A DNA stretch of 5,455 nt, taken from NCBI GenBank assembly GCA_946887425.1, contig CAMPKW010000042.1, positions 1 to 5,455 of the forward strand, in the 5' to 3' direction. The position numbers and the translations under genes are program-made. The notes below the pieces were generated by a model that had not been told where the DNA came from, searched no databases, and worked only from the letters and a program-made list of their open reading frames with translations. Shown piece by piece: positions 196 through 5,393 of this stretch (within the stretch, counting starts at the first letter, position 1; every line of letters begins with the position of its first letter). Source of the DNA: an uncultured Candidatus Saccharibacteria bacterium (GTDB lineage Bacteria; Patescibacteria; Saccharimonadia; Saccharimonadales; UBA6022).

Positions 196-237
196 AAGTA
201 TGTATTTAAATGCGAATGCGTGGAGAGGAGCGACATC

Positions 238-771
238 ATGTGGAGTTATCCAAAACCATCAATGTACCGTCAAAGAAAAAACGGCGTACATCGCAGCTCT
301 TACTTTTTAACAAGAAGTAAATCCGTCGCGGCCCTGCGTGTCGGCATACCACTGTTTGTCCTTGCTATGGCCTCGACATTAGGATGGTACTCAAGTTCCG
401 TATCGAAGCCCGCAACAACTGCAGACGTAACGCACGAAGAGACCCCGATCGATACCCGGCAGATTGAGTCGCCAAAGCCAGCTACCACCGATTCTACAAA
501 TGCAATCGATACTAACTTGGAGGTAACGCAAATGGATAATGCTCAAAAACCTGTCACTGAAACAAAACTCAATATAAATTCAGAGCCAGTGGTGATTCCG
601 GAGAGCGGAACGGTCCATAAGGTAATCCAGGACGAGAACGGCACAACAACGGTTGATATTAAGGTTGACTCACAAACAAACGGGTCAAGTGAAAATAGCA
701 CATCAATGAATATCGAAGTGAATTCAAGTAATGAAGTTGAATCAAACGTAGGAGCAAAAGAGGGGCCATAA
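238..771 (+). CDS. Unidentified signal-anchor exported protein with Ser/Thr/Asn-rich outer domain
   Basis: I do not recognise a family for this 177-residue protein. The N-terminal 34 residues are strongly basic (KPSMYRQRKN, several later Lys and Arg) and precede one hydrophobic segment at about residues 35-51. This predicts an inside tail and an outside C-terminal domain. The outer part is a low-complexity Thr/Ser/Asn/Glu linker (about 52-120) followed by alternating segments (TTTVDIKVDS, SMNIEVNSS) that suggest beta strands. There are no cysteines. The ATG at 238 is chosen because GGAGAGGAG at 222-230 sits 7 bases before it; an in-frame GTG at 220 would place that ribosome site inside the gene. 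It precedes two further exported-protein genes but is separated from them by a terminator at 756-784, so it may be a single-gene unit. A CRP-type palindrome lies upstream. Confidence 0.8.
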   Translation: MWSYPKPSMYRQRKNGVHRSSYFLTRSKSVAALRVGIPLFVLAMASTLGWYSSSVSKPATTADVTHEETPIDTRQIESPKPATTDSTNAIDTNLEVTQMDNAQKPVTETKLNINSEPVVIPESGTVHKVIQDENGTTTVDIKVDSQTNGSSENSTSMNIEVNSSNEVESNVGAKEGP

Positions 772-784
772 GCGCCTCTCTTTT
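756..784 (+). terminator. Intrinsic terminator overlapping the end of the signal-anchor protein gene
   Basis: AAAAGAGGGGC (756-766) pairs with GCCTCTCTTTT (774-784), giving an 11-bp stem with one G-U pair and a 7-base loop. The right arm ends in a T run and the left arm begins with an A run, so it could work in both directions. The TAA stop codon (769-771) lies in the loop, so the last codons of the gene form the left arm. This implies that the next gene (871) needs its own promoter or depends on read-through. Confidence 0.75.
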
Positions 785-795
785 ATGTGGTCGCT

Positions 796-840: not shown

Positions 841-870
841 AAGTACTATTTATAACCAAAGGAGGACAAA

Positions 871-1470
871 ATGAAAACGAAGAAAACAATAGGTGCCGCA
901 GTGCTCTCGCTGAGCCTCTTAGTTGGTCTTAGTGGCTTTGCAGGTGCAGTCGATGGCTCTATAGAAAATACAGGTCCACGTTCATACAACACTGTCAAAA
1001 GTGAAGTTGAGCGTAAAATCAGAGTTTGGAATGACAATGATTTGAGGCTTGATAACGACAACTACCAGCGCGCCTACACTGGTGATGCTAGGACAACTGG
1101 CAATACCACGGGTGGCGATGCAAGATCTGGCAATGCTTCAAACGCGAACGCATTGAATGTAACAGCAACTGTTGACAACTCTGCTTCAGCTGACGATTGG
1201 GCGGATGTAGTCGGTGGTGCTGGTGGTGGCGGTGAAAGCTCAGGAACTATTGAGCAGACAGGCCCTCGATCTACAAATAAAATTACCATTGAAGATACAA
1301 CTGATGTTCGCATCAACAATGACAACAACATCAGGGTCTACAATGATAACAACCAACGTGCATCATCTGGTGACGCCCGAGTTTCAGGCAACACAACTGG
1401 TGGTGACGCGACAACTGGTAACGCAACCAACACCAATACGACAACAGTTAACCTGACTGTTCGTAACTAA
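871..1470 (+). CDS. Secreted two-repeat Asn/Asp/Thr/Gly-rich surface protein, family unknown
   Basis: This 199-residue protein starts with a clear signal peptide: KTKK, a hydrophobic core to about residue 22, and a likely cut after AGA (residue 26). The mature part is two gap-free copies of a 75-residue unit (29-103 and 125-199) joined by a Gly/Ser/Asp linker containing GGAGGGG. Each unit opens with G(S/T)IE(N/Q)TGPRS, passes through an Asn/Asp-rich segment (NDN, DNDN), and ends with the 20-residue motif (70-89 and 166-185) also found four times in the next protein. There is no cysteine, membrane anchor or sorting motif, so it is probably released or held through partners. Short periodic Gly-Asp/Asn-Ala repeats suggest a beta-solenoid or fibre-like fold; this is inference. 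A strong AAAGGAGG (858-865), 5 bases before ATG, predicts high expression. A surface fibre or coat subunit is my best guess. Confidence 0.88.
   Translation: MKTKKTIGAAVLSLSLLVGLSGFAGAVDGSIENTGPRSYNTVKSEVERKIRVWNDNDLRLDNDNYQRAYTGDARTTGNTTGGDARSGNASNANALNVTATVDNSASADDWADVVGGAGGGGESSGTIEQTGPRSTNKITIEDTTDVRINNDNNIRVYNDNNQRASSGDARVSGNTTGGDATTGNATNTNTTTVNLTVRN
955..1467 (+). repeat. Two 75-residue protein-coding repeats
   Basis: The copies lie at 955-1179 and 1243-1467, 288 bases apart start to start. They align over 75 residues without a gap, and I count 42 identical positions (56%). The most conserved parts are the opening IE.TGPRS, the NDN and QRA positions, and the closing GNTTGGDA block. The second copy ends exactly at the stop codon. 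The pattern indicates internal duplication of one structural unit. Confidence 0.9.
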
Positions 1471-1513
1471 TAGGTGACAAAGTGATCATATCGTAGGTAT
1501 GACATGGATGCAT

Positions 1514-1561
1514 TCGGGGAGAAAGATCTGCGGGATTCTCCCCGACCTAGAATTTATTTTT
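1514..1561 (+). terminator. Hairpin between the two repeat-protein genes, probable terminator or attenuator
   Basis: TCGGGGAGAA (1514-1523) pairs perfectly with TTCTCCCCGA (1536-1545), a 10-bp GC-rich stem with a 12-base loop. A T-rich run (1553-1561) follows, but starts about 7 bases after the stem, so termination may be partial. It lies 44 bases after the secreted two-repeat gene and 32 bases before the ribosome site of the large repeat gene. It could let the small protein be made in excess over the large one from a shared transcript. Confidence 0.6.
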
Positions 1562-1592
1562 CAGCAGCAACTGTAATCGGAAGGAGTGTATT

Positions 1593-3425
1593 ATGCGGAA
1601 CCATAAAAATATCATGCGAGTCTGTTTACTCTACAGCTTCGCTCTCATTATGGCAACTAGCTATCCACTCGCTGCATTTGCTGCTACGACGGATCCGTCA
1701 ACTACGTCGAGCACAGTGACGCCGGCTCCGGCGACGCCAAAAGAATCGTATACATTTAATCCTGAAACAAATCGTTGGGATAGTAATAAATGGAAATATG
1801 ATGCAGCCACGGGCACGTATCAGCGACCGCCAGCACCCGAGTCTCCTATCATGACCACGCCTGAAACACCTATAGTTGCAGGCGATCAACATCCTGCAGT
1901 GCCGTCAGGTACTTCAAGCACGACAACGACAGTCGACCAGCCAACTGCTTCGTCTAGTACTACTCAGCAGTCAACTATCGTAGTTGATAATAATCTGACT
2001 TCCCAGGCCCAGACCGGTAACGCTGGTGTCATAATGAACACAACTGGAGGTAATGCTAAGAGTGGTGACGCGCTAGCAACAACAACCGTGGTTAATGCGG
2101 TGCACTCAACAGTCCAGGGAGATACGGCGGGTGTAGCGCATTTTACAGCCGATATTCACGGTAATGTCGTCGGAGATATCACGCTTGGCCCAGCCCTGGA
2201 TAGCGCCATGGCCAACTCCGCGGATGGGTCAACAAAGACTGTATTAAACGCCAGTCAATCAACAAATTTGACGAATAACATTTCGCTCGGAGCAGCCAGT
2301 GGCAACGCGGATGTTATTAACAATACGACCGCGGGCAATGCTACGACAGGAACTGCAAATACAGTTGCCAATGTCATCAACCTTATTAACTCAATCATTG
2401 CCGCCAATAAGTCATTCGTAGGTACCATTAATATTTACGGCAAACTTGACGGTGATATTTTGATCTCACCGACCTTTATTCCACAGCTACTAGCAAGCAA
2501 TGCCCCGACAGCCGCAAACGCGACGGACTCAACCACTGTTCTCAACGCTAGCGATACCCAATCGATCATAAATAACGTCACACTAAATGCAGCAAGCGGT
2601 AGTGCAAATGTGCTGGATAATACGACTGCTGGAAATGCCACTACCGGCACGGCGGCGACCAATCTTACTATCCTAAACTACACCGGTCAGCAGGTGGTGG
2701 CGAGCAATAGTCTGCTTATTTTCGTCAACGTACTTGGTCGTTGGGTTGGACTTATCGTAGACGCGCCAGTTGGAGCGACTGCGGCCGTCCTTGGAAATGG
2801 CGTCACGAGCCACACTTCGAGCGGTAGTCAGCAGGTCAATGCAAGTTCGGATGCTGCTATTACAAATAATATCGATCTCGCCTCCCTCTCTGGTGATGCG
2901 ACCGTTCAGGGCAATACCCGTGCGGGCAATGCGACGAGCGGTAACGCAACGGCCTCGGCGAACATCGCCAATATTAGTACAAGTAGCTTCAGTGTATCGG
3001 ATTGGTTCGGCATCCTCTTTATCAACGTCTTTGATACATGGCTGGGGAGCTTTGGAATTGATACGGCTAACGGCACAGTTACGCCGATAACTGGTGGCAC
3101 GATTCCGCCAGTAGATAACAAGCCGGTGGTTAGCGCATCAGTGCCGCAGTTTGGATTTATACCACGACAATCATCTACACAGCCACAATCACAGTCGACG
3201 AGCGCAGCAGCGACAGTCGAATCCGTAGACGAGAGTCCAGTAGCCGAAGTAGTCAGTACCATAGCAACCAAACCAGCTGCAATCATCGAAGGTGAGACAA
3301 CAGCACCTGTGATTATATCTGAAGGTTCTCAGCCAAACTCATCATCTGCAATATTTATCATAGCCAGCCTCATCGGTGCCACGGTTGCAGCGGGCGTCGG
3401 ACTCTATCGTAGGCAGGATATGTAA
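1593..3425 (+). CDS. Large membrane-anchored four-repeat surface protein, family unknown
   Basis: This 610-residue protein has a signal peptide (basic start, hydrophobic 10-29, likely cut after AFA at 30). A Pro/Thr/Ser linker follows, with an aromatic motif at 53-76 (YTFNPET..RW, W.YD..TGTY). Residues 125-494 hold four tandem units of about 77-99 residues. Each has a 20-residue core starting at 141, 236, 335 and 433, and about 46-48 residues later a second motif of the form (N/D)(I/V)x(G/D)xxxG. A Pro/Ser/Gln/Glu-rich stalk (about 505-584) leads to one membrane segment at about 586-605 and a short YRRQDM tail. No LPXTG motif is present. The only cysteine (11) is in the signal peptide. The layout suits a surface adhesin or scaffold held by its C-terminus. 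The start is supported by GGAAGGAG (1579-1586), 6 bases before ATG. It shares its core motif with the upstream secreted protein, so the two may assemble together (inference). Confidence 0.88.
   Translation: MRNHKNIMRVCLLYSFALIMATSYPLAAFAATTDPSTTSSTVTPAPATPKESYTFNPETNRWDSNKWKYDAATGTYQRPPAPESPIMTTPETPIVAGDQHPAVPSGTSSTTTTVDQPTASSSTTQQSTIVVDNNLTSQAQTGNAGVIMNTTGGNAKSGDALATTTVVNAVHSTVQGDTAGVAHFTADIHGNVVGDITLGPALDSAMANSADGSTKTVLNASQSTNLTNNISLGAASGNADVINNTTAGNATTGTANTVANVINLINSIIAANKSFVGTINIYGKLDGDILISPTFIPQLLASNAPTAANATDSTTVLNASDTQSIINNVTLNAASGSANVLDNTTAGNATTGTAATNLTILNYTGQQVVASNSLLIFVNVLGRWVGLIVDAPVGATAAVLGNGVTSHTSSGSQQVNASSDAAITNNIDLASLSGDATVQGNTRAGNATSGNATASANIANISTSSFSVSDWFGILFINVFDTWLGSFGIDTANGTVTPITGGTIPPVDNKPVVSASVPQFGFIPRQSSTQPQSQSTSAAATVESVDESPVAEVVSTIATKPAAIIEGETTAPVIISEGSQPNSSSAIFIIASLIGATVAAGVGLYRRQDM
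1965..3074 (+). repeat. Four tandem ~98-residue protein-coding repeats
   Basis: Approximate units are 1965-2252, 2253-2549, 2550-2843 and 2844-3074, the last being shorter. Unit borders were set at the recurring (V/L)(L/V)NAS or VNASS before a (T/I)NN strand. Core motifs lie at 2013-2072, 2298-2357, 2595-2654 and 2889-2948, spaced 95, 99 and 98 residues apart. Units 2 and 3 are the most alike (NTTAGNATTGTA in both). DNA identity is much lower than protein identity, so these are old repeats and not a recent expansion. Confidence 0.85.
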
Positions 3426-3579: not shown

Positions 3580-4218
3580 ATGGACGCATTCAAGCAATTT
3601 CTCTTACAATACCCCTGCCAAGCATATAAAAAAGGTGAAACTATTCTTCTGCGAGGTGACAAGCCGAAGCATCTTTTCATAATCGAGTCTGGATTCGTAA
3701 AGACCTATACTATTACCGCCAACGGAGATGAACGGCTTGTCTCAATTGATAGCAAAGGCGAGGATTTCCCGATTGGCTATGCATTTGACCTTATTGAGGC
3801 ATCGCAATATTTTTACGAAGCGTTTACTCGTTGTACGATCCGACTCGTGCCGCGGGAAAAGTACCTTGAGCACTTACACGCAAATGTTGAAAGTATGTAT
3901 AAGCGTCAGGTTCGTATGACAATTTTGCTTCTTTCGACACTTTCACGAGTTCATGCTCTGGAGCAATCAAGTGCAAGCGACAAGATCGCACACACCTTAC
4001 TCTATATGGCCGATCAGCTTGGAGTGATTTTGAGGCCATATAATACCCGGCTTAAAATATCCGTGACGCAACAAGAGATTGCTGATTCACTTGGCTTGAC
4101 TCGTGAGACTGCCAATATTGAGCTCAAAAAACTTGAGATGATGAAGTTGATTGCTCATTCGCGCAAGAGCTATGTGCTGCATATGGAGCGTTTGCATAAA
4201 TATCTAGAAGATAGGTGA
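3580..4218 (+). CDS. Crp/Fnr-family transcription regulator
   Basis: This 212-residue protein has the usual layout and length of the family. It has an N-terminal cyclic-nucleotide-binding-like beta barrel (about 15-95, with KKGETILLRGDKP and ESGFVKTY), a long dimerisation helix (about 98-128), and a C-terminal winged helix (about 135-210). The turn-helix is VTQQEIADSLGLTRETANIELKKLE in sequence order from residue 162. Arg175, Glu176 and Thr177 align with Arg180, Glu181 and Thr182 of E. coli CRP, which contact TGTGA; CRP Arg185 is replaced by Ile180. The barrel lacks the GE..RSA cAMP pocket (FPIGYAF and EAFTRCT instead), and Cys13 and Cys85 do not form an FNR-type cluster, so its effector is unknown. 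The ribosome site before ATG3580 is weak (GGATGA). An in-frame extension to an ATT at 3541 is open but unlikely. Confidence 0.9.
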   Translation: MDAFKQFLLQYPCQAYKKGETILLRGDKPKHLFIIESGFVKTYTITANGDERLVSIDSKGEDFPIGYAFDLIEASQYFYEAFTRCTIRLVPREKYLEHLHANVESMYKRQVRMTILLLSTLSRVHALEQSSASDKIAHTLLYMADQLGVILRPYNTRLKISVTQQEIADSLGLTRETANIELKKLEMMKLIAHSRKSYVLHMERLHKYLEDR

Positions 4219-4289: not shown

Positions 4290-5393
4290 ATGAGCAAGCG
4301 TGATTACTACGAAATACTAGGTCTACAAAAAGATGCCTCTGATGACGAAATCAAGAAGGCATTTCGAAAAGCTGCGGTAAAATATCACCCCGACAAAGAA
4401 GGTGGTGACGAGACAAAGTTCAAGGAAGCAAGTGAAGCTTACGAAGTGCTGAAAGACAGTGCGAAGCGACAGCGCTACGATCAATTTGGGCACGCTGGAG
4501 TCGGTGGGGCTTCTGGCGGTGGCGCAAGTGGTAACCCGTTCGAAGGTTTTGGTGGCTTTGGTGGACAAAATGTACACTTTGACTTTGGTGATGGTGGGCT
4601 TGGTGATATCTTTGGCCAATTCTTTGGCGGTGGTCAACAGCGCTCGCAAGGTCCGACCCGTGGTCGTGACGTCGAAGCGAGCATCCAGCTGACTTTCGAG
4701 GAGGCTGTGTTTGGTGTAGAGGAAAAGATTACTCTTGATATGGACGATGAATGTAGTCATTGTCACGGTACTACTGTAGAGCCAGGCCATGACATGAAAA
4801 CCTGCCCAACGTGTAAGGGTGCAGGTCAGCAAACTCGCATTATGAATACGATGTTTGGGCAGATCCAGCAGGCGGTCACCTGTGAAACATGTCAAGGGCG
4901 CGGAAAAGTGCCAGAGAAAGTTTGTACGGTGTGTCGCGGCCGAGGAACGGAGCGTCGCAAGCAGGCAATCACCCTTAAGGTGCCAGCTGGTATTGATGAC
5001 GGTGCAACAATCCGCCTCAAAGAGCGCGGCGAGGCTATTGGTGGCGGAGCGAAAGGTGACCTGTATGTTCATGTTCGGGTGCAGGCGCATAAGAAGTTTA
5101 CCCGTGAAGGTGATATCATTCTTTCCGAAGAGCATGTCAGTATGATCGATGCCGCCCTGGGAACTGAAATTGACGTCGATACGGTTGATGGTGCTGTGCG
5201 CATGAAGGTTACGGCCGGTACACAAAGTGGAACTGATTTTAAGCTATCGAATCACGGTGTGCCACACATGCGCTCATCGGCCCGTGGCCCGCATATTGTC
5301 AGTATTATTGTCGATACGCCGACCAAGCTAACAAAAAAGCAAAAAGAGCTGCTCGAACAATTCGAGGGAACCAAAAAACGAAGTATTTTTTAG
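4290..5393 (+). CDS. dnaJ: Chaperone protein DnaJ (Hsp40)
   Basis: DnaJ delivers unfolded proteins to DnaK and stimulates its ATPase in the cytoplasm. All family parts are present over 367 residues (E. coli DnaJ has 376). The J domain (1-67) has the HPD motif at 33-35, a Gly/Phe-rich region spans about 67-117, and four zinc-binding CxxC pairs lie at 155/158, 172/175, 198/201 and 212/215. The C-terminal client-binding and dimerisation domains run from about 225 to 350. The first zinc motif reads CSHCHGTT, not CxxCxGxG, but its cysteines are intact. The start is fixed by the typical MSKRDYYEILG; no ribosome site precedes it, which fits a leaderless mRNA from TATAAT at 4276. CIRCE at 4244-4270 indicates HrcA heat-shock control. 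No dnaK or grpE is adjacent, and no clear terminator separates it from the Crp/Fnr gene upstream. Confidence 0.97.
   Translation: MSKRDYYEILGLQKDASDDEIKKAFRKAAVKYHPDKEGGDETKFKEASEAYEVLKDSAKRQRYDQFGHAGVGGASGGGASGNPFEGFGGFGGQNVHFDFGDGGLGDIFGQFFGGGQQRSQGPTRGRDVEASIQLTFEEAVFGVEEKITLDMDDECSHCHGTTVEPGHDMKTCPTCKGAGQQTRIMNTMFGQIQQAVTCETCQGRGKVPEKVCTVCRGRGTERRKQAITLKVPAGIDDGATIRLKERGEAIGGGAKGDLYVHVRVQAHKKFTREGDIILSEEHVSMIDAALGTEIDVDTVDGAVRMKVTAGTQSGTDFKLSNHGVPHMRSSARGPHIVSIIVDTPTKLTKKQKELLEQFEGTKKRSIF

What the first reader, a model, noticed from the sequence alone, without database searches (positions are those of the whole stretch)
871..3425. Adjacent secreted and membrane-anchored proteins built on the same 20-residue motif
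The motif (S/T)G(D/N/S)A-x4-NT(T/R)(G/A)G(D/N)A-x-(S/T)G-x-A occurs twice in the small secreted protein (residues 70-89, 166-185) and four times in the large anchored one (141, 236, 335, 433). It never needs a gap. A small cysteine-free secreted subunit with a strong ribosome site beside a large anchored protein with the same motif resembles the logic of fibre subunit and cell-bound nucleator pairs such as CsgA/CsgB. No sequence homology to curli is claimed. This may be an undescribed surface fibre, coat or host-attachment system.
Basis: partly seen in the sequence, partly recalled or inferred. Interest (0 to 1): 0.78.

Follow-up and report, generated by a model that had tools for sequence, protein, structure and literature searches.

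The report
Patescibacterial sortase-linked surface repeat system
Two neighbouring genes in a tiny Saccharibacteria-type bacterium make a released and a membrane-held protein built from the same repeat; with a third, anchored version found in relatives they look like an undescribed surface fibre or coat of Patescibacteria, although no fibre has been seen.

Summary
In detail: the 20-residue motif is at all six stated places and shuffling never produced it. It is the core of a longer unit, two per secreted protein and four per membrane protein. The gene pair is adjacent in 19 of 20 Saccharibacteria loci and in 29 of the 30 large-gene genomes of a 195-genome class sample.

In the class sample it is in 17 of 30, beside a sortase in 9. 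The window's genome is not held, so it is unverified there. Similar loci occur in distant Patescibacteria (15 of 15 read). A hairpin between the genes (17 of 19 gaps, 1.2 expected) and a conserved membrane protein upstream complete the locus.

Best reading: a surface fibre or coat of the secreted protein, tethered through the same unit on anchored proteins; chaplin- or curli-like in logic, unrelated in sequence. Polymerisation is inferred; fold matches were not significant.

The parts
220..771 (+). P0003: 183 aa (GTG start), short N-terminus, one transmembrane-like segment near residues 36-54, tail with a conserved NGQ-x-VPVP-x-NGT...NGTT-x-V-x-V stretch; probable accessory membrane protein of the locus
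   Evidence: (hydropathy 1.9 from residue 36), 30, 32, 113: relatives immediately upstream of the small gene in 13 of 20 Saccharibacteria loci besides the window (9 of these 13 and the window were used to build the profile); no Pfam match
860..865 (+). Ribosome-binding site AGGAGG of the small gene, 5 nt spacing
871..1470 (+). Small secreted repeat protein (199 aa): signal peptide, two units, no cysteine, no anchor; proposed main subunit
   Evidence: (180 homologues at E<=1e-3)
1078..1137 (+). Motif copy 1 of the small protein (residues 70-89)
1366..1425 (+). Motif copy 2 of the small protein (residues 166-185)
1514..1545 (+). GC-rich hairpin between the small and large genes (10 bp stem, 12 nt loop), no strong U-run; proposed to set the subunit ratio by leaky termination or 3'-end protection
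   Evidence: comparable hairpin in 17 of 19 gaps, 1.2 expected from dinucleotide shuffles (this one p=0.005). Whole-gap folding energy of the window is not unusual (z -0.9 against mononucleotide shuffles)
1593..3425 (+). Large repeat protein (610 aa): signal peptide, N-terminal W/Y-containing domain (about residues 50-80), four units, linker, C-terminal transmembrane segment with basic tail; membrane-held partner
   Evidence: 1406 homologues at E<=1e-3 among the candidates scored; motif blocks pLDDT 93-97
2013..2072 (+). Motif copy 1 of the large protein (residues 141-160)
2298..2357 (+). Motif copy 2 of the large protein (residues 236-255)
2595..2654 (+). Motif copy 3 of the large protein (residues 335-354)
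2889..2948 (+). Motif copy 4 of the large protein (residues 433-452)

Best explanation
The window holds part of a multi-protein cell-surface assembly system of Patescibacteria. SHOWN by sequence: (1) the small protein has a signal peptide and two repeat units but no anchor; (2) the large neighbour carries four related units and a C-terminal membrane segment; (3) in relatives a third protein carries one related unit and a C-terminal anchor, often a sortase-type sorting signal with a sortase gene beside it; (4) the pair, and often the third protein, recur together in distant branches of the phylum. INFERRED: the exported small protein stacks unit on unit through long beta-strands lined with Asn/Gln ladders, giving a fibre or a coat. 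The same unit, displayed on the membrane protein and on the wall- or membrane-anchored third protein, seeds and tethers this polymer. Sortase does not polymerise the subunit, which has no sorting signal; where present it fixes the single-unit partner to the wall. The intergenic hairpin probably makes the free subunit more abundant than the membrane-held one. Likely purpose: adhesion to hosts or surfaces, or a protective coat, in an episymbiont thought to lack an outer membrane.
For: Pair adjacency: 19 of 20 loci, 29 of 30 large-gene genomes in the class sample (8 of these 30 genomes are also among the 20), 15 of 15 distant loci read. Third protein: 17 of the 20 genomes, sortase adjacent in 16, the 17th at a contig end; in the class sample 17 of 30, sortase beside it in 9 of 17. 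Sortase identity: Pfam PF04203 for all 11 candidates tested (3, 8); His, Cys and Arg columns invariant in 10 of 10 aligned. In distant loci L047, L048 and L052 the order is small, large, third, sortase. Unit homology: the small-family HMM finds the third proteins at E 2.5e-12 to 4.7e-28 and 18 of 19 complete large ORFs at 8e-14 to 1e-29 (L018's large is not found at E<=1e-4). Structure: the same strand pattern in four units of the large protein, motif blocks pLDDT 93-97, same order in the small. Conservation alternates every second residue along strands 48-70 and 142-166 (lag-2 autocorrelation 0.67 and 0.65; 0 of 10,000 shuffles as strong), the conserved face being Val/Asn/Asn/Asn/Asn/Gln/Ala. 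Unit number varies: 2 in Saccharibacteria, 3-4 in 100 of 120 listed distant small proteins, up to 6. Hairpin in 17 of 19 gaps. All 5 rows with E<=10 in the two PDB Foldseek searches were functional amyloid subunits (FapC four times, CsgA once), although none is significant.
Confidence: 0.57

Rival explanations
1. The proteins are modular adhesins, not a polymer: the repeats form stiff beta-rich stalks or binding modules, the large and third proteins act as separate cell-bound adhesins, and the small secreted one is a soluble partner (ligand, decoy or lid) that binds their units.
For: The large protein has nearly invariant hydrophobic segments between motifs (W384, W471, F472, W483) and a conserved N-terminal W/Y domain, not needed for plain stacking; it persists without the small one in L001; four units in 121 of 121 listed relatives suggests a fixed architecture.
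Against: The small protein varies from 2 to 6 units among listed relatives, as expected of a stacking subunit; a hairpin follows its gene in most loci, which could raise its dosage; no known binding domain in Pfam. The stronger ribosome site of the small gene holds in the window but is not consistent across loci.
Confidence: 0.25
2. The small protein is an S-layer-like lattice protein of the envelope, the large and third proteins being its membrane and wall tethers.
For: Ultrasmall groundwater cells, likely CPR or DPANN, lack an outer membrane, and one showed a surface layer with 3.8 and 10 nm periodicity (PMC7906910, passages read); two tethers per coat fit a lattice.
Against: No S-layer domain among Pfam matches; only 30 of 195 class genomes carry the large gene; repeat-number variation is unusual for a fixed lattice. 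The imaged cells were not identified to species.
Confidence: 0.12
3. Compositional coincidence: Asn/Gly/Thr/Ala-rich secreted proteins look alike and there is no specific system.
For: Biased composition; weak matches to Sdr/Clf repeats in distant acidic members.
Against: 0 exact motif matches in 20,000 shuffles; conserved gene adjacency in distant genomes; strand conservation pattern; motif blocks modelled at pLDDT 93-97; Fisher p about 4e-29 for co-occurrence, not corrected for relatedness.
Confidence: 0.03

Closest known systems
Streptomyces chaplins (ChpA-C long, ChpD-H short; Pfam PF03777)
   Same: Free secreted copies and sortase-anchored copies of one domain in a monoderm bacterium; [quoted passage not shown]
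   Different: No PF03777 match; unit is longer and Asn/Gly-rich; here the sortase-linked protein has one unit and the free one two or more, and there is an additional four-unit transmembrane partner.
Curli CsgA/CsgB
   Same: Secreted repeat subunit with a cell-bound relative of the same repeat; Asn/Gln with alternating inward hydrophobic residues.
   Different: No curlin match in Pfam scans; motif spacing 95-99 aa against an average curlin repeat of 23 aa (PMC10192328, passages read); that CsgB is no transmembrane protein and that curli need an outer-membrane exporter is recalled.
Pseudomonas Fap (FapB/FapC)
   Same: Imperfect repeats with conserved Asn/Gln/Gly joined by linkers (PMC12392863, passages read); FapC is the top PDB row for both models.
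   Different: Foldseek E 0.58-6.2, not significant; no FapC chain among profile matches to PDB sequences. Other fap genes were not searched for.
Gram-positive sortase-assembled pili
   Same: Sortase gene beside a secreted protein with a sorting signal (in relatives).
   Different: The proposed main subunit has no sorting signal, so it should not be sortase-polymerised; none of 4 sortases tested passes an NCBIfam class cutoff, class C included.
CPR-enriched sortase family fam000526
   Same: Sortases reported as enriched in CPR and near ubiquitous in Microgenomates (PMC6744442, passages read).
   Different: The passages read name no substrate; this work proposes one. Whether these sortases belong to that family was not tested.

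Membership tests
Curli (CsgA/CsgB) | Curlin repeat (Pfam) | tested here: not met
   No curlin family among Pfam matches for P0001/P0002 (E<=1) or for 78 small and 73 large relatives (E<=0.1)
Curli (CsgA/CsgB) | csgDEFG export genes | not tested
   The five window proteins have no such Pfam match, but neighbours and whole genomes were not scanned for them
Curli (CsgA/CsgB) | Forms amyloid fibres, cell-bound relative nucleates | not testable with these tools
   Needs protein
Chaplins | PF03777 domain | tested here: not met
Chaplins | Free and sortase-anchored forms of one domain | tested here: met
   free two-unit protein, and single-unit protein with an L[PA]xT[SA] signal in 16 of 20 genomes of relatives, 15 of these with a sortase seen beside it; not verifiable in the window's own genome; covalent anchoring itself not testable
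Fap (FapB/FapC) | Sequence or fold match to FapC | tested here: inconclusive
   Top PDB Foldseek rows but E 0.58-6.2; no profile match
Sortase substrates (third protein) | Signal peptide, LPxTG-like motif just before TM, basic tail | tested here: met
   L[PA]xT[SA] motif and C-terminal TM in 16 of 17 third-protein genomes of the 20; L028 lacks it. Class sample: of 16 sequences read, 7 canonical, 6 with an LPxTG/LPxVG-like motif too far from the TM, 3 without. So met in a part of the family
Sortase | PF04203 with catalytic His, Cys, Arg | tested here: met
   class not assignable
Sortase-assembled pilus | Main subunit with sorting signal | tested here: not met
   2 of 119 small relatives have a TM-like stretch after residue 40; 0 of 121 have LPxT[GA] in the last 60 residues

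The most novel reading that the evidence does not exclude
A previously undescribed family of cross-beta surface polymers present from Saccharibacteria to Gottesmanbacteria and relatives: a secreted Asn-ladder subunit, a multi-unit membrane seed, a single-unit anchor fixed in many members by sortase, and a small membrane accessory protein, with subunit ratio set by an intergenic hairpin. It would be an adhesive or protective fibre of episymbiotic ultrasmall bacteria, distinct from type IV pili.
Probability: 0.38. Interest if true: 0.85.

Novelty: new variant of a known kind. Interest (0 to 1): 0.7.

Why it matters
Patescibacteria are a large, mostly uncultured group whose cultivated members live on other microbes, and apart from type IV pili little is known of what is on their surface. 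This locus gives a defined, testable set of parts for a surface structure found across the phylum, supplies probable substrates for some of their sortases, and would add an independent example of tethering a self-assembling protein through anchored copies of its own unit.

Tried and rejected
Rfam and tRNA scans of the window: nothing. Pfam, NCBIfam, PHROGs and PDB sequence searches with both proteins: no family. Small numbers of small relatives match SH3_15 (8 of 78, best E 2.9e-5), ribosomal L6 (7 of 78) or the YdcK beta-solenoid repeat (3 of 78) weakly; treated as noise. Sdr/Clf matches of acidic distant members are far below cutoff and look like composition. Viral fold library: no significant match. 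The own-genome search was impossible. The sortase alone is no marker: 149 of 195 class genomes have some sortase-profile match at E<=1e-3, so only adjacency was used. Considered and dropped: sortase-polymerised pilus (subunit lacks a signal), type IV pilin and toxin or effector (no such Pfam match in the window proteins).

Limits of counts. The class is that of G009; its name is not given by the tool, and Saccharibacteria comes from record titles. Third-protein counts outside the large-gene genomes rest on the profile alone (1 of 165, G047), whereas inside them 16 of 17 sequences were read (not G113), so the Fisher value for the third protein (1.7e-15) is biased. Of 19 phylum-sample matches not in the class sample, the 15 fetched were mostly those with long or several matching frames; G221, G229, G312 and G454 were not read. 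L012's 9-nt gap was left out of the hairpin count. Statements that the system is not in print rest on searches of an open-access library, judged by capped listings of titles and abstract openings. On checking against the calls I found the sortase link weaker in the class sample (9 of 17) than in the 20 genomes, and lowered the two main probabilities slightly (0.60 to 0.57, 0.40 to 0.38) and raised the adhesin rival (0.22 to 0.25).

Full report
What is there. The window carries, on the + strand, P0003 (220-771, membrane protein), a small secreted protein (871-1470), a large membrane-anchored protein (1593-3425), a Crp/Fnr-type regulator (3580-4218) and dnaJ (4290-5393).

The pair is real. Relatives number 180 (small) and 1406 (large, among the candidates scored) at E<=1e-3. 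Of 20 Saccharibacteria-type loci found with the large-protein alignment, 19 have the small gene directly upstream on the same strand, gaps 9-130 bp; in L007 and L013 the large gene runs to the contig end. In a sample of 195 genomes of the class, 30 hold the large gene at E<1e-60 (8 of them also among the 20), and 29 of these hold the small gene beside it: 28 by the genome search (G203 by a partial match) and G124 after its locus was read. The exception, G001, is a complete genome; no remnant of a small gene was recognised in the gap. Four genomes have small-profile matches without the large one (G044, G047, G101, G206). Fisher p about 4e-29, not corrected for relatedness.

A third partner. Ten of the 20 loci also hold, 1.4-3.7 kb upstream of the large gene (on the other strand in L002, L004, L007 and L015), a 173-218 aa protein with signal peptide, one unit, and a C-terminal L[PA]xT[SA] motif, transmembrane segment and basic tail. 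In all ten a sortase gene lies next to it. Pfam confirms the three of these sortases that were scanned, and His, Cys and Arg columns are invariant in all ten. In seven of the other ten genomes the same protein lies elsewhere: six beside a sortase, including the divergent L028 (Pfam sortase E 2.3e-21), which lacks the motif, and one at a contig end (L026). It was not found in G001, G005 and G014. In the class sample 17 of 30 large-gene genomes have it, 9 of 17 with a sortase beside it. Of 16 sequences read, 7 have a canonical signal next to the membrane segment, 6 an LPxTG- or LPxVG-like motif too far from it, and 3 none; G113 was not read. So the sortase link is strong in the window's closer relatives and looser across the class.

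Across the phylum. In 379 genomes drawn from the phylum, 30 match the small profile; 11 of these are also in the class sample. Of the other 19, 15 loci were fetched, and all 15 have a multi-unit protein of the small type beside a larger protein matching the large profile (E about 1e-10 or better; 1.0 kb away in L043, closer elsewhere). In 14 of these 15 the printed end of the larger protein includes a membrane-like segment; L043 does not. Five of the small proteins (L046, L047, L048, L051, L052) end in an extra hydrophobic tail of unknown meaning. Ten of 15 loci also hold a third-type protein with a C-terminal hydrophobic segment, and five have a Pfam-confirmed sortase (L040, L047, L048, L051, L052). 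In L047, L048 and L052 the order is small, large, third, sortase. Other named hits are Woesebacteria and Daviesbacteria; that these are Microgenomates is recalled.

Other parts. P0003 relatives sit directly upstream of the small gene in 13 of 20 loci and, at E<0.01, in 9 of 18 class-sample loci read; the family is unnamed. A GC-rich hairpin stands between the small and large genes in 17 of 19 gaps of at least 30 nt, against 1.2 expected. The threshold was set after looking, and whole-gap folding energies are less striking (z -5.0 to -0.5, window -0.9). It lacks a strong U-tract, so leaky termination or protection of the upstream message are both possible. Either would give more small than large protein. 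This is inference.

Mechanism. The small protein has no sorting signal and almost never a hydrophobic anchor (2 of 119), so it is either released or held by non-covalent contacts. Anchored proteins with the same unit give it natural docking sites. The simplest reading is a fibre or coat built by unit-on-unit stacking and tethered to membrane and wall. The design is that of chaplins and, more loosely, of curli and Fap, without detectable homology to any of them. Rivals are modular adhesins with a soluble partner, and an S-layer-like lattice.

Novelty. None of the eight literature searches used for this listed a paper whose title or abstract opening describes this system; papers opened were read as passages only. 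A CPR-wide protein-family study reports sortases as CPR-enriched; the passages read name no substrate. A recent paper on Saccharibacteria surface structures concerns type IV pili (PMC12206443, passages read). I rate it a new variant of a known kind: a known design, new parts.

Noticed in passing
window 4290-5393; L001, L002, L004: The locus lies by dnaJ in the window, and in L001, L002 and L004 between a dnaK-like gene (recognised by eye) and dnaJ, with the Crp/Fnr-type regulator between the large gene and dnaJ in the window, L001 and L002; a regulator of this cluster (c2) follows the large gene in other loci too. It could control the system.
   Followed up: partly
L006, L009, L016, L017 (near sortase): A glycosyltransferase-like gene follows the sortase (Pfam PF00535 in the two tested, L006 and L009), so the surface proteins may be glycosylated.
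   Followed up: partly
L029 2169-2555 (G004): A 128-aa secreted relative of the unit, very rich in Tyr/Asn, without anchor, at a separate locus.
   Followed up: no
L041, L049, L043 small proteins: In distant genomes the strands become alternating Val-Asp/Asn-Asp runs, strongly acidic, which might make assembly depend on calcium or pH.
   Followed up: no
G045:C35, G114:C3, G119:C17, G123:C8, G101:C2, G206:C6: Additional longer proteins (371-439 aa frames) match the small profile; in four of these genomes (G045, G114, G119, G123) they lie on a contig other than the pair's.
   Followed up: no
window 755-790: By eye, a terminator-like stem with a T-run just after P0003, suggesting that P0003 and the small gene may be separate transcripts; the automatic scan did not list it.
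   Followed up: no
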